Positions 10,303 to 20,527 of a stretch of DNA of 43,316 nucleotides are shown in pieces (position 1 is the stretch's first letter; the number at the start of each line of letters is the position of its first letter). Source of the DNA: Candidatus Butyricimonas faecavium (GTDB lineage Bacteria > Bacteroidota > Bacteroidia > Bacteroidales > Marinifilaceae). The stretch is from positions 1-43,316 of the forward strand of contig CALUKD010000031.1 of assembly GCA_944321125.1 (NCBI GenBank), read 5' to 3'. The translations under genes and the position numbers were made by a program. The notes under the pieces were generated by a model that saw nothing but the letters and a program-made list of their open reading frames with translations, was not told the DNA's origin and did not search any database.

Positions 10303-11652
10303 TAAGCTTGTAACTCGCCGTAGATGAATGTTCCTCACTGATTTATTGAATCTACGGATGAAGAGGGTGGCAGCGAACATGAGGCCGCCACAGAATCCAG
10401 AGAGTAGTCCGGGAGCTCCGAAGTCGAGCAGAATTCCGGCAATATATGCTAGCGGTACGGCGACAAATAAATAGGAAACGAGGGCATAGATCATGGGACG
10501 TTGCACGTCGGTGATGCCTCGTAAAGCTCCGAGTGCGGTTACTTGTAATCCGTCGAAGATTTCAAACACGGCAACCACGAAGAATAGGTTGCGAGCCACT
10601 TTTATCACCTCGGGATCGGGCGTGAAAATGGATGCGATGGGGGCCCCGAAAAGGGCGTAGATCACGGCTGCTCCAGCCATGAAAATAACGGCAAGGCGGA
10701 GAGAAGCATGGGCGTAACGACGCATTTTCCCGATATTTCCCCGCCCGAATTCATGACTGACGAGTATGGTAGAGGCTCCGGCGATTCCGCTGGAGATCAT
10801 GAATGTAAGTGAAATCATGGACATGACAATTTGATTTGCCGCAAGGGCAATGGTGCCTAACCATCCCATCATGACAGTGATGAGGCTGAGGGATAGAAAT
10901 TCCACGACCATTTGTCCGGCTATGGGGTAGCCGACTTGTAATAGTTGTTTGATTTTCCGACGGCTCGTGTTGCTAAATTGAAAAAAACGAAATACGGGAC
11001 TGTATATTTGGGAACGATGGATGTAAAGAAAAAAAGCAATAGGCATCATCAGGCGGGAGATTAATGTCGCTAGTCCCGCACCCGCTACCCCAAGGAATGG
11101 CGCACCGAATTTACCATATATAAATATGTAGTTTAGGAAAATATTCATCAAATTGCATGAAATCGTGATCACCATGGCTACCTTCGTGTTTCCAATTCCT
11201 TCCATGTATTGTTTAAATGTCATGAACAGGATGAACGGGATGACCGAGAATGAGGTCAGGATATAATATCCTTTGCATAATTCTACAACTTCTGCGGGTT
11301 GTCCCATCATGGAAAGGTAGGGCATGAGCATGAACAAGAAAAGGGTGAGTACGAGTGACACGGTTGTGTTCAGTAGAAGTGAATTTTGGAAAAATCCGGC
11401 TATACGTTCTTTATCATCAAGCGCATGAGCTTGGCCCACAAGTGGGGTTAGGCCGGTGGCAATACCCATGCCGACAACCATCGTGTTCATGATAATTGCT
11501 CCCGCTAATGACACGGCTGCCAATTCCGGGGCTCCAAGTTGTCCTACCATGATGTTATCTGCCATTTGTACGATCGCCTGACCGGCTAATGATAGCATGA
11601 TCGGGAAGGCGATGTTGATGTTCTGTTTGTAATACAGTGAGTTAATTCTCAT
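10300..11652 (-). CDS. MATE family efflux transporter (NorM-like)
   Basis: This 450-aa inner-membrane protein has about twelve hydrophobic helices. The MATE hallmarks are LSLAGQAIVQMADNIMVGQLG in helix 1 and the GIATGLTPLVGQAHA stretch in helix 2, mirrored in the second half by GIAGASTILVSHEFGRG. It probably couples H+ or Na+ entry to export of cationic drugs or metabolites. I start it at the ATG at 11652 because the 12 upstream residues add an atypical hydrophobic leader. It stands alone, downstream of nothing on its strand. Confidence 0.92.
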   Translation of the reverse strand: MRINSLYYKQNINIAFPIMLSLAGQAIVQMADNIMVGQLGAPELAAVSLAGAIIMNTMVVGMGIATGLTPLVGQAHALDDKERIAGFFQNSLLLNTTVSLVLTLFLFMLMPYLSMMGQPAEVVELCKGYYILTSFSVIPFILFMTFKQYMEGIGNTKVAMVITISCNLMNIFLNYIFIYGKFGAPFLGVAGAGLATLISRLMMPIAFFLYIHRSQIYSPVFRFFQFSNTSRRKIKQLLQVGYPIAGQMVVEFLSLSLITVMMGWLGTIALAANQIVMSMISLTFMISSGIAGASTILVSHEFGRGNIGKMRRYAHASLRLAVIFMAGAAVIYALFGAPIASIFTPDPEVIKVARNLFFVVAVFEIFDGLQVTALGALRGITDVQRPMIYALVSYLFVAVPLAYIAGILLDFGAPGLLSGFCGGLMFAATLFIRRFNKSVRNIHLRRVTSL

Positions 11653-11816
11653 GACTTGAATTTTAAAAACGGGGACAAAGATGTACATTTATTGTCACAA
11701 ATAAAAATGTTGAAATCTTTTTGCGGGAAATGAAACTAGATTAATCATCGTTTCCGTATAATGAATAAATGAAACGCAAAAATTTGAGAAATTTAACTAT
11801 ATATTAAGTCAAAAAA

Positions 11817-11847
11817 TTGCGAGAATTGGAAAATATGTGTATTTTTG
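11817..11847 (+). promoter_or_regulatory. Predicted promoter of the 130-aa exported protein
   Basis: TTG (11817-11819) and TATTTTTG (11840-11847) are separated by 20 bases, a full match to the Bacteroidetes TTG-N19-21-TAnnTTTG consensus. The start codon is 20 bases after the -7 box, implying a short leader. Confidence 0.5.
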
Positions 11848-11866
11848 GTTTCGTAAATAGAGAGAA

Positions 11867-12259
11867 ATGAAAGGATTGATATTTCGATATTTTTCGTTGT
11901 TACTCCTCTTTTTGGTCATCGGGGTAAATCTCTTTGGAAGTGAAGGTTCCAAGGGGAATATTCCTGTTTCTGATAAGGAGAACATAGAAAAAGCGTCGGA
12001 AGAATTCCAGGTTTCCACTACCCCGTTTGATCAGCATGGAGTTTTTGAACGAACTTTAGAGTTTTCAAGTCGGCAGATTGTTAATAATGGAAGTCGGGAA
12101 CAATTCTCCCTCTCGTTCTATCGGAAAACAGAACTTGCGTCACGTAGAAGTGAATTCCGGATGATGGAAGAAAAGACTTACGGGTATTTTTCCGATTTGC
12201 TGGGACTTCGACATCTTCAAGGTTTCTACGTGTTCGATTTGTGTAAAATCATTATTTAG
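11867..12259 (+). CDS. Exported 130-aa protein with C-terminal HLQGFY motif
   Basis: An N-terminal hydrophobic stretch (about residues 7-24) looks like a signal peptide or anchor. A polar, low-complexity middle follows, and then a hydrophobic C-terminus with the motif GLRHLQGFYVFDLCKIII. The protein at 18487-18879 has exactly the same length and ends in an aligned sequence (MKHIQGFYIYWMNKMII), so the two are paralogs in overall plan and in the last 24 residues. They lie on either side of the ExbB/TonB/TPR cluster. I recognise no family. Placement suggests an envelope role, possibly with the TonB motor, but that is inference. A predicted promoter precedes it. Confidence 0.7.
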   Translation: MKGLIFRYFSLLLLFLVIGVNLFGSEGSKGNIPVSDKENIEKASEEFQVSTTPFDQHGVFERTLEFSSRQIVNNGSREQFSLSFYRKTELASRRSEFRMMEEKTYGYFSDLLGLRHLQGFYVFDLCKIII

Positions 12260-12474
12260 CTATTCCTAGGTCCGTTTTGTCCAGTGTCACGAATGGTGGT
12301 ACCGGTGAGTTGTACTCGCTCATTGAAAGCGTGTTTTGATATGACATGCTGGTATAGAGGTGACTAATGTAATTATGGTATCTTTCTTCGGATACGGACG
12401 GACGAATTATATCCTTATTTTTCAGTGTATTATAAAATTGAATTTATTCATAAACGAATAATAATAGTAGACCT

Positions 12475-12600
12475 ATGGAGAATAGTAAAGAAAATGCCAA
12501 GGGTTTTACCAACTCGGCATTATTTCAGACATTGTACCCGATCGTGATCATGTTAGTCATATTTGGTTTGGTTTTCTTGGCATTATACGTGGCATTATAA
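12475..12600 (+). CDS. Single-pass membrane microprotein upstream of exbB (41 aa)
   Basis: An ATG at 12475 opens 41 codons: a polar N-terminus (MENSKENAKGFTNSALFQ) and then one strongly hydrophobic helix (about residues 19-41, YPIVIMLVIFGLVFLALYVAL). It stops 33 bases before exbB and reads in the same direction, so it is probably the first gene of the ExbB operon. Its layout, a short cytoplasmic tail and one helix at the C-terminus, resembles small subunits that stabilise membrane complexes. No homolog is known to me. Confidence 0.6.
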   Translation: MENSKENAKGFTNSALFQTLYPIVIMLVIFGLVFLALYVAL

Positions 12601-12633
12601 TATTAAAGCATTTAAAATATAAAAAATACTCCT

Positions 12634-13449
12634 ATGAAAAAGACTGCAACAAAACAAGGAACAAGAAGAAGTTTAGGTATTTCTGCATTTCCGATAATCA
12701 TTCTGTGTTTTATACTGGCAATGGTTATTTATCATTTCGTGTATGGTAATCCGGCTAATTTTATTAATAATGACCCGAATAATCATCCTATTCAGGGAAA
12801 TTTGCTAGGTACGATTTATAAAGGGGGGATCATCGTTCCGGTTATCCAGACCTTGTTATTTACGGTATTGACTTTAAGCGTGGAGCGGTTGATTGCCTTA
12901 AAAAGAGCAAAAGGAAAGAAGAATTTGCAACAATTCGTGACGAAGGTGAAGAGTGATCTTGAGGAGGGGAATATTGAGGCTGTTCGCCAAGCTTGTGACG
13001 AACAGAAAGGAACCGTGGCAAACGTGATTAAAGCATCGCTTTCTACTTATTCACAGGTGTCAGTTTGTGACACGTTGTCGAAAGAAGAGAAACAGTTGGC
13101 AGTACGGAAAGATCTGGAAGAGGCTACCATGCTTGAGTTGCCGACGATGGAACAGAATCTGGGGGTAATAGCCACGATCACGACTTTAGGGACGTTGATG
13201 GGATTGCTCGGAACTGTAATCGGGATGATCAAGTCTTTCGCGGCATTATCTTCTGCCGGGGGAACGGATTCTATTGCCCTTTCTACCGGTATTTCGGAGG
13301 CTCTTGTGAACACGGCTTTCGGTATTGCAACCGGGGCGTGTGCTGTGATTGCTTACAATTTTTTCACTAGTAAGATAGACGGGATCACGCATAGTATTGA
13401 CGAGATCGGGGCTTACTTGGTACAGAGTTTCACGATTAAACAACGCTAG
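12634..13449 (+). CDS. exbB: ExbB/TolQ/MotA proton channel protein
   Basis: This 271-aa protein carries the MotA/TolQ/ExbB domain. A first hydrophobic helix spans about residues 18-38 and a second about 66-86, before the ERLIALKRAK cytoplasmic start. The two characteristic C-terminal helices are VIATITTLGTLMGLLGTVIGMI (about 183-204) and ISEALVNTAFGIATGACAV (about 219-238). ExbB pentamers surround ExbD and use the proton gradient to drive TonB. It starts a cluster exbB-exbD-exbD-tonB-pstS-TPR found in many Bacteroidetes. The extra N-terminal helix makes it somewhat longer than E. coli ExbB. Confidence 0.93.
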   Translation: MKKTATKQGTRRSLGISAFPIIILCFILAMVIYHFVYGNPANFINNDPNNHPIQGNLLGTIYKGGIIVPVIQTLLFTVLTLSVERLIALKRAKGKKNLQQFVTKVKSDLEEGNIEAVRQACDEQKGTVANVIKASLSTYSQVSVCDTLSKEEKQLAVRKDLEEATMLELPTMEQNLGVIATITTLGTLMGLLGTVIGMIKSFAALSSAGGTDSIALSTGISEALVNTAFGIATGACAVIAYNFFTSKIDGITHSIDEIGAYLVQSFTIKQR

Positions 13450-13473
13450 TATACACTTGTTAATATATACGTT

Positions 13474-14076
13474 ATGAGTCAGAAAATTAAAAAGAAATCA
13501 ACGTTCATCGACATGACGGCCATGAGCGACGTGACGGTACTGTTGTTGACGTTTTTCATGCTGACTTCCACGTTTATCCAGAAAGAACCGGTGCAGGTGA
13601 ACCCGCCGCAGTCGGTTTCTGAGATCAAGATTCCCGAATCAAATATCGTCTCTATTTTAGTCGAGCCAACGGGAAAGGTGTTCATGGGACTGGATAAACC
13701 ACAGGATCGTATCGAGGTGTTGAAAAAGATGGGAGAGAGTTATCAGATTGAATTTTCGGATCAGGAATTGAAAAAATTCAGTCTGTGTAATTCATTCGGG
13801 GTGCCTATTCAGGGAATGAAACAATTCTTGGCATTATCATCGGAAGAACAGGATAAAGTGATCATGAATTATGGAATTCCTTGTGATAGCACGAATAACC
13901 AGTTTAAATCGTGGATGCAATTTGCCCGGGAGGTGAACAAGGACTTGGTGATCGCTATCAAGGCGGATCAGAAAACTCCTTACCCGTTGATTAAGGATAT
14001 TATGGCAACGTTGCAGGATCTGCGGGAGAATCGTTATAACTTGATTACTTCGTTGCGTAATATGCCGGAGGTATGA
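13474..14076 (+). CDS. ExbD/TolR-family biopolymer transport protein, insertion-bearing
   Basis: This 200-aa protein has one N-terminal transmembrane helix (about 18-35, DVTVLLLTFFMLTSTF) preceded by MTAMSDV, which supplies the conserved Asp for proton transfer. The periplasmic part is larger than in E. coli ExbD (about 140 aa): an insertion spans about 70-150, between the SILVEPTGKVFMG strand and the VIAIKADQKTPYPLIKDIMATLQ segment. It follows exbB by 24 bases and precedes a second ExbD. ExbD dimers sit in the ExbB pore, so the two ExbD proteins may form a heterodimer. Confidence 0.9.
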   Translation: MSQKIKKKSTFIDMTAMSDVTVLLLTFFMLTSTFIQKEPVQVNPPQSVSEIKIPESNIVSILVEPTGKVFMGLDKPQDRIEVLKKMGESYQIEFSDQELKKFSLCNSFGVPIQGMKQFLALSSEEQDKVIMNYGIPCDSTNNQFKSWMQFAREVNKDLVIAIKADQKTPYPLIKDIMATLQDLRENRYNLITSLRNMPEV

Positions 14077-14106
14077 TAGAACCTTATAACTTGTAATTTA
14101 TTTATT

Positions 14107-14778
14107 ATGGCAGAAATACAACAAAAGGATAGCGGGGAACGCAAGAAAGGGAAACAGAAGAAATTCAGTATCCGGGTGGATTTTACGCCTATGGTGGATA
14201 TGAATATGTTGTTGATTACTTTCTTCATGCTCTGCACGTCCATGAGTAAACCCCAGACAATGGAAATCAGTATGCCGAGGAAAGATTTGTTGAATGAGCA
14301 GGAGCAGAACAAGGTGAAGGCTTCCAAGGCAATGACTATTTTGTTGGGTAAGGAGGGGAGAGTGTACTATTATATGGGAGAGCCGGACTACGAGAATCCC
14401 GATATGGTGCAGGAAACCGATTTTTCCCCGAACGGTTTGCGTGCAATCTTGTTAGGACGTAATCAGGTGGTGATGCAGAAGATCCGGGAATTGAAACAAA
14501 AGAAAGCAAACTTGGAGATCTCGAACGAGGAATATCTGAAAGAGGCTGCCGAGATCAGAAAAGATAAGGATTCTCCCGTTATATTGATCAAGGCTACCGA
14601 TTTTGCGAATTACAAAAATTTGATTGATGTGCTCGATGAGATGCAGATATGTAATATCGGACGGTACGCGATCATGGATATAACTCCGGGGGATTTGCGA
14701 TTGTTACAGGATAAGACACACGACGGGTATGCCGATGATTTGAAAGAAGTCATCGAGTACCGGGAGTTAAAACAATAA
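14107..14778 (+). CDS. ExbD/TolR-family biopolymer transport protein, second copy
   Basis: This 223-aa protein has a transmembrane helix at about 36-52 (MLLITFFMLCTSM) with the proton-transfer Asp in FTPMVDMN just before it. The C-terminal half keeps the ExbD folding pattern (SPVILIKATDFANYKNLIDVLDEMQI, about 156-181) and a charged, helical insertion lies before it (about 105-150). It differs strongly from the first ExbD, so this is not a recent duplication. It is encoded 30 bases after its partner and 4 bases before tonB. Confidence 0.9.
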   Translation: MAEIQQKDSGERKKGKQKKFSIRVDFTPMVDMNMLLITFFMLCTSMSKPQTMEISMPRKDLLNEQEQNKVKASKAMTILLGKEGRVYYYMGEPDYENPDMVQETDFSPNGLRAILLGRNQVVMQKIRELKQKKANLEISNEEYLKEAAEIRKDKDSPVILIKATDFANYKNLIDVLDEMQICNIGRYAIMDITPGDLRLLQDKTHDGYADDLKEVIEYRELKQ

Positions 14779-14782
14779 GACC

Positions 14783-15607
14783 ATGGCAAAGGATATAAAT
14801 GTAAATTCGGTAGAGTGGTGTGATCTGATATTCGAAGGAAAGAATAAGGATTATGGGGCTTACGAGTTGCGTAAACACTCTCCCCGGCGTCACTTGACGG
14901 CCTATGTCGTGATTATAGGTTGTGTGGTTCTGGCAATGGTTCTTCCGGCTTTTGTTCGTTTCCTGACACCCGTTAAGGCGCAGGAAAAGATGGTTACGGT
15001 GACGGAATTGTCTGATTTGAAGATGGATTTGCCGGAGGTGAAGGAAGAGAACAAGATCGTGGCGGTGAATGTTCCGCCGCCACCGACGTTGAAGACAACG
15101 ATTAAGTTCACGGCTCCCGTGATTAAGAAAGATGAAGAGGTTCGTGAGGAAGACGAGATTAAAACGCAGGATGAGGTGAATCAAGCGAAAGCGGCGATTT
15201 CCGTGGCGGACGTGAAGGGTAATGACGAGGAAAACGGTAAGGATATTGCTGATCTGGAAGACCATAAATTGATCGTGGCAAGTGAAGATGAGGTCTTTCA
15301 AGTGGTGGAACAAGCTCCCGAATATCCGGGAGGTATGGCTGCCTTGATGAAATGGATCGGTAAAGAGATCAAGTATCCTTCTATTGCCCAAGAAATGAAT
15401 ATAGAGGGAAGAGTAATCGTACAATTCGTGATCGGACGGGACGGGTCGGTACGTGATGTACAAGTGTTGCGTACGGTCGACCCGACGCTGGATAAAGAAG
15501 CCGTTCGCGTGGTAAAGGCCATGCGTAAATGGATTCCCGGAAGACAGCGGGGTGAACCGGTTTCCGTGCGGTTCACTTTACCGATCACGTTTAAATTACA
15601 ACAATAA
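14783..15607 (+). CDS. tonB: TonB energy transducer
   Basis: This 274-aa protein has the TonB plan. A cytoplasmic N-terminus is followed by one inner-membrane helix (about 39-60, VVIIGCVVLAMVLPAF), a proline-containing linker with VPPPP (about 94-98), a charged spacer rich in Glu and Lys, and a C-terminal domain (about 175-274) with PEYPGGMAALMKWIGKEIKY and EGRVIVQFVIGRDGSV. The domain contacts TonB boxes of outer-membrane receptors, such as the SusC protein encoded at 35313, and the helix couples to ExbB-ExbD. It is the fourth gene of the cluster, and its product belongs to the PPGGMxAxxxFI-type Bacteroidetes TonB group. Confidence 0.93.
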   Translation: MAKDINVNSVEWCDLIFEGKNKDYGAYELRKHSPRRHLTAYVVIIGCVVLAMVLPAFVRFLTPVKAQEKMVTVTELSDLKMDLPEVKEENKIVAVNVPPPPTLKTTIKFTAPVIKKDEEVREEDEIKTQDEVNQAKAAISVADVKGNDEENGKDIADLEDHKLIVASEDEVFQVVEQAPEYPGGMAALMKWIGKEIKYPSIAQEMNIEGRVIVQFVIGRDGSVRDVQVLRTVDPTLDKEAVRVVKAMRKWIPGRQRGEPVSVRFTLPITFKLQQ

Positions 15608-15681
15608 AAGAAATGATTCTGTGATTTAGTGATTGCCGATTAGGTGATTAAAAGAAAGCGTTGGACAGCGAGTGAAAATTA

Positions 15682-15710
15682 CTAAATCTAAAATCGTAAA
15701 TCTAAAATTA
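15682..15710 (+). repeat. Tandem TCTAAAAT repeat before the PstS-like gene
   Basis: Two AAATCTAAAAT units separated by a short spacer lie eight bases before the PstS-like start. The same repeat type precedes atpE and atpA, and a shorter form precedes atpC. Confidence 0.5.
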
Positions 15711-15717
15711 AAAAGGT

Positions 15718-16656
15718 ATGAATATTCGAATCGGCTTTTGGATGTTATGCCTGATCTCCCTTGTGGCTTGTAAAGGGAAAACTTCAGGAGTACAAGATAC
15801 CTTGTTTAGCGGGGTAATTCGAGTTGCAGTCGACGAAACGCTGTTTCCCTTGGCCGAGGAAGAGATTGCAGTTTTTGAAGCGCAATATAATCAGACAGGT
15901 ATCGTCCCGATATATACGAGTGAAGTGGATGCAATAACCCTGTTGTTACGCGACAGCGTGCGCTGGGTGTTGGCCACACGCCCTTTATCGGGGGACGAAT
16001 TAGAGTCATTCCACAGCAATAAGTTTTTTCCGGAGTCCATCAAGATAGCTACTGATGGTGTTGCTTTGATTGTAAACAGGCAAAATGCCGATTCGATATT
16101 TAACGTGAGTACTTTAAAGAAAATATTTTCCGGTGAGATAACACGTTGGAACCAATTGTCGGCGGACTCGAAATTGGGAGAAATACAAGTCGTGTTTGAC
16201 CACCGGAATTCCAGCACAGTACGTTACGTGCTGGATTCGATATGCGGGCGGGGTAACTTGTCTGATCGATGTCATGCCGCCGGAACGAATCGGGATGTCA
16301 TCGAGTATGTTACTCGAACTCCCGGTGCTATGGGGGTAATCGGGGTCAATTGGATTAGTGACGAACAGGATTCTTTATGCCGGGATTTTCGAAAAGAAAT
16401 ACAGGTGGTACGGATCAGTCGTGCGGAGTTACCTACTTACGGGAATAGTTACCAGCCTTACCAGTATTACCTCTACACGGGGCAATATCCATTATCTCGT
16501 GATATATACATTTTACTGAATGATCCCCGGAGCGCGCTTCCAACCGGGTTAACCTCCTTTTTTGCAGGAGCAAGAGGACAGCGAATCATATTGAAAGCCG
16601 GATTGTTACCTGCCACGATGCCCGTGAATATCGTGAACGTGAGGGACCAACTTTAA
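15718..16656 (+). CDS. PstS-like phosphate-binding lipoprotein of the TonB cluster
   Basis: A lipoprotein signal peptide ends in LVAC (Cys18). The remaining 295 residues have the PBP-like domain seen in PstS: DGVALIVNRQNADSIFNVS and LKKIFSGEITRWNQL are its typical strands, and TPGAMGVIGVNWI matches the late glycine-rich turn. PstS captures phosphate for an ABC importer, but no pstCAB genes are nearby. In this cluster the protein is embedded between tonB and a TPR gene, so it may act as an envelope sensor or structural partner rather than a nutrient-binding protein. The next gene starts in the same TAATG junction. Confidence 0.85.
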   Translation: MNIRIGFWMLCLISLVACKGKTSGVQDTLFSGVIRVAVDETLFPLAEEEIAVFEAQYNQTGIVPIYTSEVDAITLLLRDSVRWVLATRPLSGDELESFHSNKFFPESIKIATDGVALIVNRQNADSIFNVSTLKKIFSGEITRWNQLSADSKLGEIQVVFDHRNSSTVRYVLDSICGRGNLSDRCHAAGTNRDVIEYVTRTPGAMGVIGVNWISDEQDSLCRDFRKEIQVVRISRAELPTYGNSYQPYQYYLYTGQYPLSRDIYILLNDPRSALPTGLTSFFAGARGQRIILKAGLLPATMPVNIVNVRDQL

Positions 16657-16673
16657 TGAATAATTTTAAGATC

Positions 16674-18329
16674 ATGAAAACGAAATTAATTATATGCGGA
16701 TTATTTTGCTTGCTGGCAGCGACGAGCGTGAAGGCAGCAGACAATAAGGTCGGAATAGATCTTTATGAATCGGGAATGATCGGGGCTGCCAAGGCTTTTT
16801 TCCTCGATAATTTGAAGCAACAACGAGAGGGTGTCTTGCAAGCAGAAACCTGTTACTATTTGGGAGAATGTTATCTGGTGTTGGGACTTCGTGATTCTGC
16901 CGGGATATACTACCAGAAAGGGATAGAGTTTATGCCTGACTATTCTTGCAACCGGATCGGGTTAGTTGGGTTGAAATTGGGGAAAGATATGGACGGTGAA
17001 GAGTTGTTCAAAGAGGTGTTTACAAGCAAAAAAGACAAGAAAGATGCCGGCGTGCAGTTGGCAATAGCCAGAGCATATTTGTATGCAGGTAATATGACAA
17101 AAGCAATGGAACACGTGAATCAGGCGAGAGAGTTGGATGCTAAAAGTGGGTTGCCGTACTTGGTGGAAGGAGATATTCTGGCTGCACAGGGGAAAGTTGG
17201 GGAGGCTTGTGCCAAATACGAAATGGCCGCTTATTTTAGTCCGGATTGTGTGGGAGCATACTTAAAACAGGCTCGCTTGTATATGTCGGCCAATCGTTCC
17301 TTATCGTTGGAAAAGTTGGATAAAGCCCGGGAAGAATCCCCGGAATTTTGTGGTATCTATTGTATATTAGGGGAGCTGTATGAAATGGCCGGAGATAGTA
17401 AGGCTGCTGCTGATAATTATTCTAAATTTATTCAGTCAGGGTATTATGATCAGGATCATTTGTTGCGGTATGCCGGTATATTGTATTTCGATAAACAGTA
17501 TGAAAAGATGTTGCCTGTACTTCAATCCGTGTTGAAAGAAAAGCCGGAAGATTTGGTGGCAAAACGTTTATATGCTTATTGCCTTTCTAAACGGGAGAAT
17601 GGGGAAAAATGTCTGGAGGCTATAAAGCATTTTATAGAATCTACTCCCGAAGAGAGTCAGATTTGTCAGGATTATCTTTGTTACGCGGAACAGTTGACCG
17701 TGAAAAAAGAATATAATGAGGCAATTACTTATTATAAAAAGGCATTGAATGCGGATTGCAAGCGTCAGGAGTTATTGAAAGATATTGCGGATCTTTTCGT
17801 GAAAAATAGAGATTTGGATTCGGCCGTGGTCTATTATCAGCAATATTTTGATTTTGTGGAGGAACCGGCTGCGGAAGATTTGTTGAAACTGGGGAAATGT
17901 TACTATAATCTGGCTTGCCAGGATTCGGTGCCGGAATTGCAAAAGGAAGAGCTGATAAAAGCAGATACTTTATTCAAAGAGTTAAGTATCCAAGTTCCTA
18001 ATAGTTACGTGAGTTATTTTTGGCGGGCCCGGGTAAATTCCATGCTTGATCCGGAAACAACGAAGGGGTTGGCAAAACCATATTATGAGAAAGTGATAGA
18101 AATAGGATCAGTACAACCGGAACGTTATAAACGAGAACTGATAGAAAGTTATAAATACTTGGGATATTATCATTACGTGATTGCTGATGCTATTACCACA
18201 AAAAATAATGGGAATCCTGATCCGGCAAAAGAAGAATACGGGGAGGCGAAGTCATTTTTCTCTAAAGTATTAACGTTGGATGCCAAGGATGAGGTGGCAT
18301 TGAAAGCTCTTGAGAGTATTAAGCTGTGA
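16674..18329 (+). CDS. Exported TPR-repeat protein
   Basis: A signal peptide (MKTKLIICGLFCLLAATSVKA) precedes about 530 residues of tandem helical repeats with the TPR pattern of Ala, Tyr and Leu positions. Examples are YYLGECYLVLGLRDSAGIYY and YNEAITYYKKALNADCKRQE, with a final set near AKSFFSKVLTLDAKDEVALKAL. The frame also allows an ATG at 16656, in a stop-start overlap TAATG with the PstS-like gene; I chose 16674 for its cleaner signal peptide. It is the last gene of the ExbB-TonB cluster and may scaffold the system in the periplasm. The exact partner is unknown. Confidence 0.87.
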   Translation: MKTKLIICGLFCLLAATSVKAADNKVGIDLYESGMIGAAKAFFLDNLKQQREGVLQAETCYYLGECYLVLGLRDSAGIYYQKGIEFMPDYSCNRIGLVGLKLGKDMDGEELFKEVFTSKKDKKDAGVQLAIARAYLYAGNMTKAMEHVNQARELDAKSGLPYLVEGDILAAQGKVGEACAKYEMAAYFSPDCVGAYLKQARLYMSANRSLSLEKLDKAREESPEFCGIYCILGELYEMAGDSKAAADNYSKFIQSGYYDQDHLLRYAGILYFDKQYEKMLPVLQSVLKEKPEDLVAKRLYAYCLSKRENGEKCLEAIKHFIESTPEESQICQDYLCYAEQLTVKKEYNEAITYYKKALNADCKRQELLKDIADLFVKNRDLDSAVVYYQQYFDFVEEPAAEDLLKLGKCYYNLACQDSVPELQKEELIKADTLFKELSIQVPNSYVSYFWRARVNSMLDPETTKGLAKPYYEKVIEIGSVQPERYKRELIESYKYLGYYHYVIADAITTKNNGNPDPAKEEYGEAKSFFSKVLTLDAKDEVALKALESIKL

Positions 18330-18352
18330 ATCGGTAAAAGTGTGTCGATTGT

Positions 18353-18380
18353 GGGGGTATTCTTGTATTAGAATATCCCC
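18353..18380 (+). terminator. Terminator after the ExbB-TonB-TPR operon
   Basis: Arms 18353-18362 and 18371-18380 (GGGGGTATTC with GAATATCCCC, one G-U) form a 10-bp stem with an 8-base loop, followed by AATTTTAAT. The U-tract is weak. Confidence 0.6.
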
Positions 18381-18486
18381 AATTTTAATAAAATGAAAAT
18401 TTAGTATTCGTAAAAGATTAAGTTTTGGTACGGAAATTGCTTTATAGCGGAAGAGTTGTTTATTGAATATTTAAATAGATTGAATT

Positions 18487-18879
18487 ATGAAGTGGATTTT
18501 GCGGGCGATACCAATTTTACTTTTGATGGTTTGTTTTGGAGGGCAAGCTATGCCGGAGGACATGCCAAGAGAAAGAAGAGTGGAGACCACCGGAGAATCG
18601 ATGAATAGTTCAGAGATTACAGCTACTTTTTCGGCAATTGATCTGACGGCCGTGTATGATTTTCTGGAGAAGTCATTTATGTTGACGGATATTGTGGATT
18701 TACCTGAGGACGTAGAAATTCAAAAAGACAAACGGGTGAGTTCTGCGAAAGAGATTCTTAAAAAAGATATTGATGGAAAGAATAGTCATGACGCGTGGCG
18801 TGATGAAATCTTTGATTACTTGTCTATGAAACATATCCAGGGATTTTATATTTACTGGATGAATAAGATGATTATTTAA
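18487..18879 (+). CDS. Exported 130-aa protein with C-terminal HIQGFY motif
   Basis: A hydrophobic N-terminus (about residues 4-20, ILRAIPILLLMVCFGGQAM) looks like a signal peptide. A charged middle section follows, and the protein ends in FDYLSMKHIQGFYIYWMNKMII. It has the same length as the protein at 11867 and shares the C-terminal pattern F-x-D-x-L-x3-H-x-Q-G-F-Y-x5-K-x-I-I. The middle parts do not align, so the tail is the conserved piece, possibly an interaction or sorting tail. It sits between the TPR gene and the ATP synthase operon. Family unknown. Confidence 0.7.
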   Translation: MKWILRAIPILLLMVCFGGQAMPEDMPRERRVETTGESMNSSEITATFSAIDLTAVYDFLEKSFMLTDIVDLPEDVEIQKDKRVSSAKEILKKDIDGKNSHDAWRDEIFDYLSMKHIQGFYIYWMNKMII

Positions 18880-18994
18880 TTTGTAATAATCATATAAACG
18901 TATCATTGGAATCTAGTACATGGCCTAAATATAGTATGGCCGGGAAGAAACTATTCTGAGTGAATATACGTTAAAGTTATAAGTTAGTATTTAA

Positions 18995-20527
<1,533 letters not shown>

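What the first reader, a model, noticed from the sequence alone, without database searches (positions are those of the whole stretch)
11867..18879. Two equal-length exported proteins with a shared HxQGFY tail on either side of the TonB cluster
Both are 130 aa, have an N-terminal export signal and end in F-x-D-x-L-x3-H-x-Q-G-F-Y-x5-K-x-I-I, while their middles differ. They lie immediately before the microprotein/ExbB operon and after the TPR gene. This looks like an unnamed family whose tail is the functional part.
Basis: partly seen in the sequence, partly recalled or inferred. Interest (0 to 1): 0.7.

Follow-up and report, generated by a model that had tools for sequence, protein, structure and literature searches.

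The report
Leader peptides before bacterial energy genes
Two small exported proteins in a gut bacterium belong to an undescribed family of 'leader' genes, each sitting first on the messenger RNA of an energy or ion-pumping operon (complex I, ATP synthase, TonB energizer, calcium pump), whose fixed last 16 residues and unusual stop signal suggest that they control that operon by stalling the ribosome.

Summary
The 130-aa proteins at 11867-12259 (P1) and 18487-18879 (P2) share a C-terminal tail at a fixed distance from the stop. They are two of six copies (one weak) found in this Butyricimonas genome and 71 collected in Bacteroidales. They do not bracket one TonB system: P1 leads exbB-exbD-exbD-tonB; P2, behind a terminator-like hairpin, leads atpD. 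Other copies lead nuoA (complex I), DedA/Ca2+-ATPase and a two-TM protein. In a blind test with the two-TM gene as bait, 24 of 30 loci had an upstream leader-type ORF.

Shared anatomy: signal peptide; unalignable middle; about 130 aa; tail G-[FYH]-Y-[IVL]-Y-x-L-x-[KR]-[IL]-[IL]-I at the stop. A TAnnTTTG box precedes the leader in 38 of 51, the downstream gene in 0 of 50. Ends are biased to ATT-TAG-C (16 of 52; 0 of 524 controls), though P2 ends ATT-TAA-T. Tail pN/pS 0.12, middle 0.39.

Best reading: cis-acting, export-coupled leader peptides that stall the ribosome near their stop codon, like SecM or VemP, with a new motif and bioenergetic targets. The leader role is well supported; stalling and its signal are inferred; a common RNA switch was tested and not shown.

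The parts
11840..11847 (+). TATTTTTG, match to the Bacteroides -7 promoter box TAnnTTTG, about 20 nt before the P1 start codon
   Evidence: read; box found before 38 of 51 leaders and 0 of 50 downstream genes; consensus from a passage of PMC7366714
11867..12259 (+). P1: leader ORF (130 aa) of the exbB-exbD-exbD-tonB operon: signal peptide, variable middle, conserved tail
   Evidence: no family match
12185..12256 (+). P1 conserved C-terminal tail (last 24 aa) ending RHLQGFYVFDLCKIII
12254..12260 (+). ATT-TAG-C at the end of P1 (last codon, stop, following base)
12475..12600 (+). 41-aa single-TM microprotein between P1 and exbB (context, not part of the family)
12634..13449 (+). ExbB/TolQ/MotA family proton channel, first large gene downstream of P1
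   Evidence: Pfam MotA_ExbB 1.3e-28
13474..15607 (+). exbD, exbD, tonB
   Evidence: Pfam ExbD, ExbD, TonB_C
18352..18381 (+). intrinsic-terminator-like hairpin after the TPR gene, separating the TonB operon from P2
   Evidence: 12 pairs, 5 GC; 4 such sites in the region, 5.6 expected in shuffles
18426..18441 (+). TGGTACGGAAATTGCT, sigma-54-like -24/-12 element before P2
   Evidence: 10-11 of 12 positions of a recalled consensus in all six genus genomes; one other leader (G277) also has a 10 of 12 match; in the window alone two matches with up to 1 mismatch vs 0.9 expected
18487..18879 (+). P2: leader ORF (130 aa) of the atp operon: signal peptide, variable middle, conserved tail; ends ATT-TAA-T
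18805..18876 (+). P2 conserved C-terminal tail (last 24 aa) ending KHIQGFYIYWMNKMII
19016..20527 (+). atpD, F1 ATP synthase beta subunit, first gene downstream of P2
   Evidence: window ORF; its orthologue after the G007 leader gives Pfam ATP-synt_ab 3.1e-64; used as query

Best explanation
P1 and P2 are cis-acting leader peptides. The leader is the first ORF on the mRNA of an energy-conserving or ion-pumping membrane system. Its signal peptide sends the nascent chain to the Sec translocon while the C-terminal 30-40 residues are still in the ribosome tunnel. The conserved tail, in many members together with a slow stop context (UAG-C or UGA-C after AUU or similar), holds the ribosome at or next to the stop codon. 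Pulling by active export releases it. When export falters, for example because the proton-motive force or Sec capacity is low, the stall lasts and expression of the downstream operon changes, most likely up. Shown by sequence analysis: one family, leader position, co-transcription architecture, tail and stop-context constraint, target set. Inferred: stalling, release by export, sign of the effect, and the link from stall to downstream expression (translational coupling or Rho; no intrinsic attenuator is seen in the window).
For: (1) Tail in fixed register to the stop behind unrelated middles. (2) Blind tests: the two-TM bait led to a new leader in the own genome, and 24 of 30 bait loci had an upstream leader-type ORF. 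With a scoring matrix trained only on exbB/atpD/DedA leaders, 14 of those 24 outscore all 712 background C-termini (ORFs of 100 aa or more, spurious frames included) and 22 of 24 rank in the top 3.1%. Two of the 24 (G007, G220) had already been found by the tail profile. (3) Promoter box TAnnTTTG within 60 nt of the leader start in 38 of 51; before the downstream gene 0 of 50; anywhere between them 2 of 50; control genes 63 of 422. (4) Stop context: TAGC 19 of 52 vs 11 of 524, ATTTAGC 16 of 52 vs 0 of 524, last codon ending in T 45 of 52 vs 137 of 524. In 14 members found after the pattern was noticed: Ile at -1 is ATT in 10 of 10, TAGC 5 of 14 (p=2e-5), ATTTAGC 3 of 14. (5) pN/pS pooled over ten orthologue pairs: tail 0.12, middle 0.39, signal peptide 0.32. 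(6) Hydrophobic N-terminus in 49 of 52, a hydrophobic stretch in the middle in only 2; no confident fold for P1 (pLDDT 53, pTM 0.20). (7) The published search criteria for monitoring substrates (small uORF, N-terminal export signal, conserved C-terminus, spacer over 30 aa) are met, except that the downstream gene is not sec/yidC (PMC10987492 section 6).
Against: No stalling data. The tail has no Pro/RAPP-type motif of known arrest peptides. The weak stop context is not universal: 28 of 52 have no C after the stop, and P2 itself ends ATT-TAA-T. Folding around the stop codon is only weakly stronger than in controls (mean -8.1 vs -6.9 kcal/mol, p=0.006; p=0.02 for pairing of the stop region), with no common hairpin, and RNAalifold on P1, P2 and DedA leader ends gave no convincing conserved structure. 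The middle is also under purifying selection, more than a pure spacer needs. The leader is patchy: before atpD an intact one is present in 11 of 30 family loci read, out of 40 genomes with atpD. Total length is tighter than the wide spread reported for most Sec-monitoring substrates (PMC10987492 section 12). Some two-TM leaders have degenerate tails (two of 24 bait leaders rank below the top 5% of background).
Confidence: 0.6

Rival explanations
1. Leader peptide, but regulation is by translation termination or transcription attenuation without sensing of export; the signal peptide is only there to clear the peptide from the cytoplasm (TnaC-like logic with another signal).
For: Strong bias at the stop itself (ATT-TAG-C); bases just after the stop are T-rich and A-poor.
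Against: Export signal kept in 49 of 52; no intrinsic terminator between P1 or P2 and the target in the window scan; no Rfam match.
Confidence: 0.2
2. Genuine exported small proteins that act in trans on the neighbouring complex, as assembly factors or inhibitors, with the tail as a membrane-binding or partner-binding helix.
For: Middle is under purifying selection; nearly always next to a membrane system; tail is amphipathic by eye; the P1 model has a long low-confidence C-terminal helix.
Against: The same tail goes with unrelated complexes; middles are unalignable between paralogues; no confident fold predicted; stop-codon context and promoter placement are unexplained.
Confidence: 0.12
3. 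Secreted peptide signals (pheromone precursors) or substrates of a sorting system that reads the conserved C-terminus, such as a type IX secretion tail.
For: Signal peptide + variable middle + conserved C-terminal peptide is also the plan of pheromone precursors; G-x-Y...K-hydrophobic end loosely recalls type IX tails (recalled, not tested by alignment).
Against: No Pfam/NCBIfam match for the five members scanned; upstream of bioenergetic or two-TM genes in nearly all cases; nucleotide-level bias of last codon, stop and +4 base.
Confidence: 0.05

Closest known systems
Sec/YidC monitoring substrates: SecM, VemP, MifM, ApcA, ApdA, ApdP and the RAPP-like (RQH) family
   Same: Small ORF upstream of the target, N-terminal export signal, variable spacer, conserved C-terminal segment close to the stop, patchy and fast evolving.
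   Different: Different motif (G-F-Y-I-Y-x-L-x-K-I-I-I-stop, no RAPP/RAGP); targets are complex I, ATP synthase, ExbBD-TonB, Ca2+-ATPase and a two-TM protein instead of secA/secDF/yidC; stop context itself constrained; stalling not shown.
[quoted passage not shown]
   Same: Same phylum, conserved residues run right up to the stop codon, export signal.
   Different: NSP/NAP-stop motif, upstream of secA/secDF; the tail here has no terminal proline.
CruR and TonB-related RAPP uORFs (PMC10987492 discussion, PMC12992588 passages)
   Same: Exported uORFs before genes outside protein localization, including TonB-related ones.
   Different: Those precede TonB-dependent receptors or copper genes and carry RAPP-like motifs; here the energizer exbB itself and other energy operons.
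TnaC-type leader (recalled)
   Same: Peptide-controlled stalling with the stop codon in the A site.
   Different: TnaC is 24 aa, cytosolic, tryptophan-sensing; nothing of that is present here.

Membership tests
Sec/YidC-monitoring arrest peptides | small uORF with no annotated function upstream of the regulated gene | tested here: met
   (that the downstream gene is regulated is not tested)
Sec/YidC-monitoring arrest peptides | downstream gene is secA, secDF or yidC | tested here: not met
   targets are exbB, atpD, nuoA, DedA/Ca2+-ATPase, two-TM protein
Sec/YidC-monitoring arrest peptides | N-terminal secretion signal or TM segment | tested here: met
   49 of 52 by hydropathy; no signal-peptide predictor was available
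Sec/YidC-monitoring arrest peptides | C-terminal sequence conserved among homologues | tested here: met
Sec/YidC-monitoring arrest peptides | spacer of more than 30 residues between signal and conserved end | tested here: met
   about 80-90 residues, estimated from lengths
Sec/YidC-monitoring arrest peptides | ribosome stalling in vitro or in vivo | not testable with these tools
   needs translation assays
RAPP-like (RQH) arrest peptides | R/Q/H-A/G-P-P/G motif near the C-terminus | tested here: not met
   no such motif in the tails printed (read by eye)
Bacteroidota NAP-stop / NSP-stop uORFs | terminal N-A-P or N-S-P before the stop | tested here: not met
   last residue Ile in 40 of 52; no terminal Pro in the tails printed
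Known Pfam/NCBIfam family | match at the curated cut-off | tested here: not met
   P1, P2 and three further leaders: no Pfam hit, best NCBIfam E 0.029, far under its cut-off
Rfam regulatory RNA | match at gathering score in 11600-19200 | tested here: not met
   0 matches

The most novel reading that the evidence does not exclude
Bacteroidales carry a cis-acting regulon in which exported arrest peptides with one shared stalling tail act as gauges of membrane energization. When the proton- or sodium-motive force falls, export of the leader slows, the ribosome stays stalled at the leader's stop codon, and the cell adjusts complex I, ATP synthase, the TonB energizer, the Ca2+ pump and a new two-TM protein together, without any shared transcription factor.
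Probability: 0.3. Interest if true: 0.9.

Novelty: new variant of a known kind. Interest (0 to 1): 0.77.

Why it matters
Export-sensing arrest peptides described so far mostly control the export machinery itself. A family with one shared tail placed in front of complex I, ATP synthase, ExbBD-TonB and Ca2+-ATPase would show that nascent chains can regulate the membrane's energy budget in gut Bacteroidales. It offers a candidate stalling motif unlike RAPP or NAP-stop, with a constrained stop codon, that can be tested at once by toeprinting. It would also turn a group of 'hypothetical exported proteins' into regulatory ORFs.

Tried and rejected
Partners of the TonB machine: rejected, because other copies lead unrelated operons and P2 belongs to atp. 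Known family: Pfam, NCBIfam and Rfam negative. Sigma-54 as the common control: the element before P2 is not general; apart from the genus P2 leaders only G277 reaches 10 of 12 positions. Hairpin around the stop codon as a common RNA switch: striking in the nuoA leader of this genome and in P2, but weak over all 52 (300 of 518 controls used); consensus folding of P1, P2 and DedA leader ends unconvincing. Intrinsic attenuator between leader and target: none in the window. Fold of P1: no confident model. Identity of the two-TM protein: good model (pLDDT 91.9) but no PDB match at E below 0.001. Short-motif searches: H-x-Q-G-F-[YF] as DNA in 30 relatives is mostly noise outside the genus; 41 stretches of the genome collection match [RK]HxQGFY[IV][YF] but none was confirmed as a relative of P1 by tblastn.

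Spread outside the order: 392 phylum-wide genomes searched, which include some of the same order, and only the own genome matched at E<=0.001. Order-wide, 32-residue profile: of nine places outside the own genome with E<=0.01, four proved to be leaders; the other five are not leader-like by frame or extent (two of them, L100 and L103, not read). Order-wide, 24-residue profile: of 33 places with E<=0.001, 25 are open frames of 115-175 aa ending at the tail; the other eight are one leader with an in-frame stop and seven frames taken as chance (one, G207, not read). Bait loci that failed: L126, L131, L133, L141 (no leader), L119 (stop before the tail), L135 (no ATG). Rows dropped before counts: near-identical ends (71 to 52 members). 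The 19 places were chosen by frame and end. Six of the 71 are doubtful: G073, G219 and G342 C32 (target unidentified; the last also without ATG), G342 C37 (short frame, downstream ORF without Pfam match), G352 (cut by the contig end), the nuo leader of G007 (no ATG).

Paper searches: the listings show arrest-peptide work on sec/yidC, TonB receptors and copper genes, and no paper on QGFY-type leaders or on arrest peptides before nuo, atp or exb; only open-licence PMC text was searched and most listed papers were not opened. PMC10987492: outline, sections 6, 12, 14 and passages seen; PMC12992588 and PMC7366714: passages; the rest: listings only.
Full report
WHAT WAS CHECKED. Two ORFs of 130 aa are present at 11867-12259 (P1) and 18487-18879 (P2). 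Both begin with a basic residue and a long hydrophobic stretch and end in tails that match at 10 of 24 positions without a gap; no shuffle of 200,000 reached that. The first 106 positions share 9 residues. Neither protein matches Pfam or NCBIfam at threshold.

CONTEXT IN THE WINDOW. P1 is followed, 215 nt on, by a 41-aa single-TM microprotein and then exbB, exbD, exbD, tonB, a PstS-like protein and a TPR protein. A terminator-like hairpin with 12 pairs lies just after the TPR gene. P2 comes after it and ends 136 nt upstream of atpD. So the two proteins do not bracket one system: each stands at the head of its own operon.

WHO THE ORGANISM IS. G002 and G005 are of the window's genus, so the window is from Butyricimonas (Bacteroidales, Odoribacteraceae).

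THE FAMILY. A protein search of the own genome gave a third copy upstream of DedA, a Ca2+-ATPase, a CPA2 antiporter and a CNNM/CorC protein. P1 and P2 keep their places in the five other genus genomes searched, where they evolve far faster than neighbours: against B. synergistica P1 is 51% and P2 32% identical, while exbB is 89% and atpD 96%. A profile of the 42-residue tail matched 14 of 56 family genomes at E<=0.1; nine of these (the six of the genus, G010, G037, G038) have leaders at E below 1e-4, directly upstream of exbB, atpD or DedA, and a weak one in G067 precedes a two-TM protein. G010 has a further leader, seen by eye, before a related two-TM protein. A profile of 32 residues over 393 order genomes added four: one in another family upstream of a Ca2+-ATPase, and three (one in the own family) upstream of a two-TM protein. 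Two of the two-TM proteins were scanned and have no Pfam or NCBIfam name at threshold.

BLIND TESTS. The two-TM protein from another genus was used as bait in the own genome. It hit contig C2, and the ORF just upstream (126 aa, signal peptide) ends KQDGGYYVFALREIIV-stop, in exact register with the known tails. The bait profile was then run on 247 genomes of the order; 28 had a match (32 places), and 30 loci were read. Of these, 24 have an upstream leader-type ORF of 116-147 aa; four have none, one has a stop codon before the tail, one lacks an ATG. A position matrix trained only on exbB, atpD and DedA leaders ranks the C-termini of 14 of those 24 above all 712 background C-termini and 22 of 24 in the top 3.1%; over all 27 two-TM leaders, five of them found by the tail or by eye first, Mann-Whitney p=1.8e-18. 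Several of the low-ranking ones have clearly degenerate tails.

MORE TARGETS. A 24-residue profile of 29 tails matched 50 of 393 order genomes at E<=0.02, with chance hits among the weaker ones. Reading 19 new places chosen by frame and end gave leaders before nuoA/nuoB of complex I in four genomes, the own one included, before atpD, exbB and Ca2+-ATPase in others, before the two-TM gene in six, and before two small membrane ORFs in two genomes, in one of which a probable Na+/Ca2+ exchanger follows (recognised by eye) (Pfam). Three targets stay unidentified. Of 392 genomes drawn across the phylum only the own one matched at E<=0.001, so the family looks restricted to Bacteroidales within the reach of this profile. 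My set holds 71 members: two-TM gene 33, exbB 10 (one doubtful), atpD 10, DedA/Ca2+-ATPase 9, nuo 4, small membrane ORFs 2, unidentified 3. The own genome has six, one of them weak.

ANATOMY. First set: 52 members, length 116-147, mean 129.7, SD 5.0, although middles do not align. Hydrophobic N-terminus in 49 of 52 non-redundant members, a hydrophobic stretch in the middle in only 2. Tail consensus, strongest in the exbB/atpD/DedA leaders: [RK]-[HY]-x-x-G-[FYH]-Y-[IVL]-[YF]-x-L-[RCK]-[KR]-[IL]-[IL]-I-stop. Pooled over ten orthologue pairs, pN/pS is 0.12 in the tail, 0.39 in the middle and 0.32 in the signal peptide, as expected of a translated ORF whose tail is the most constrained part. AlphaFold2 gives no confident fold for P1 (pLDDT 53, pTM 0.20, 15 sequences).

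LEADER POSITION. The Bacteroides -7 box TAnnTTTG (PMC7366714, passage) lies within 60 nt of the leader start in 38 of 51 members, starting 12-48 nt before it. It is within 60 nt of the downstream gene in 0 of 50 and anywhere between leader and gene in 2 of 50; control genes 63 of 422, shuffles 4.7% ('downstream gene' is the longest ORF starting within 450 nt, in a few cases the second gene). The simplest reading is one transcript that begins just before the leader. P2 in the genus is an exception: it has a sigma-54-like element instead.

THE STOP CODON IS PART OF IT. In 43 non-redundant members Ile at the last position is ATT in 30 of 32, against 5 of 20 at that position in 373 control genes. 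In the larger set the stop is TAG in 27 of 52 (controls 94 of 524), TAG followed by C in 19 of 52 (11 of 524), and the string ATTTAGC in 16 of 52 (0 of 524). Fourteen members found after this was noticed repeat it: ATT in 10 of 10 Ile, TAGC in 5 of 14. C after the stop is a weak termination context in E. coli (recalled). The DedA leaders of the genus all end in TGA-C. But 28 of 52 have no C there, and P2 of the window ends ATT-TAA-T. A protein that worked only after export would have no obvious reason for this bias.

MECHANISM. Export signal, variable spacer, conserved C-terminus reaching the stop, leader position and patchy, fast evolution are the marks by which SecM/VemP-type monitoring substrates were searched for or described (PMC10987492 sections 6, 12, 14). 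I therefore propose stalling at or beside the stop, relieved by export. What connects a stall to the downstream gene is not shown: no common RNA structure was found around the stop, no intrinsic attenuator is visible in the window, no Rfam family matches. The target list (complex I, ATP synthase, TonB energizer, Ca2+ pump, perhaps a Na+/Ca2+ exchanger) suggests that the sensed state is membrane energization, but this is inference; the largest target class, the two-TM protein, has no known function (AlphaFold2 pLDDT 91.9, no PDB match at E below 0.001).

LIMITS. The leader is patchy: among 40 family genomes with atpD, 30 loci were read and 11 have an intact leader. A twelfth, G059, shows the tail in a 34-aa open frame about 110 nt before atpD. 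Twelve of those without belong to a clade with more distant atpD (67-69%) and another ORF of 324-332 aa in that place. The middle is not free to vary. Many genomes are drafts in hundreds of contigs. No expression or translation data were available.

Noticed in passing
window 12475-12600: 41-aa single-TM microprotein before exbB; present with changed sequence in several Butyricimonas genomes and Sanguibacteroides, not seen before exbB in G038.
   Followed up: partly
window 18426-18441: Sigma-54-like element TGGTACGGAAATTGCT before P2/atpD, conserved in six genus genomes; ATP synthase under sigma-54 would be unusual.
   Followed up: partly
L107/L108, L113-L142: Two-TM protein family of Bacteroidales (about 175 aa, good AlphaFold2 model, no PDB match), behind a leader-type ORF in 24 of 30 loci read; near atpD in G176 and beside a Na+-pump decarboxylase-like operon in G067 (by eye).
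   Followed up: partly
L166 (G163): A leader before the two-TM gene has an in-frame stop codon ahead of an intact tail; disrupted leader, error or recoding cannot be told apart.
   Followed up: no
L142 (own genome, C14): A second two-TM-like gene that has lost its TM part (102 aa) still follows a leader-like ORF with a degenerate tail.
   Followed up: no
L223-L234: In the clade with more distant atpD a conserved ORF of about 324 aa sits where the leader would be.
   Followed up: no
L185, stop of the nuoA leader: A 10-pair stem around the stop codon (nine Watson-Crick pairs plus one U-G), followed by a second strong hairpin.
   Followed up: partly
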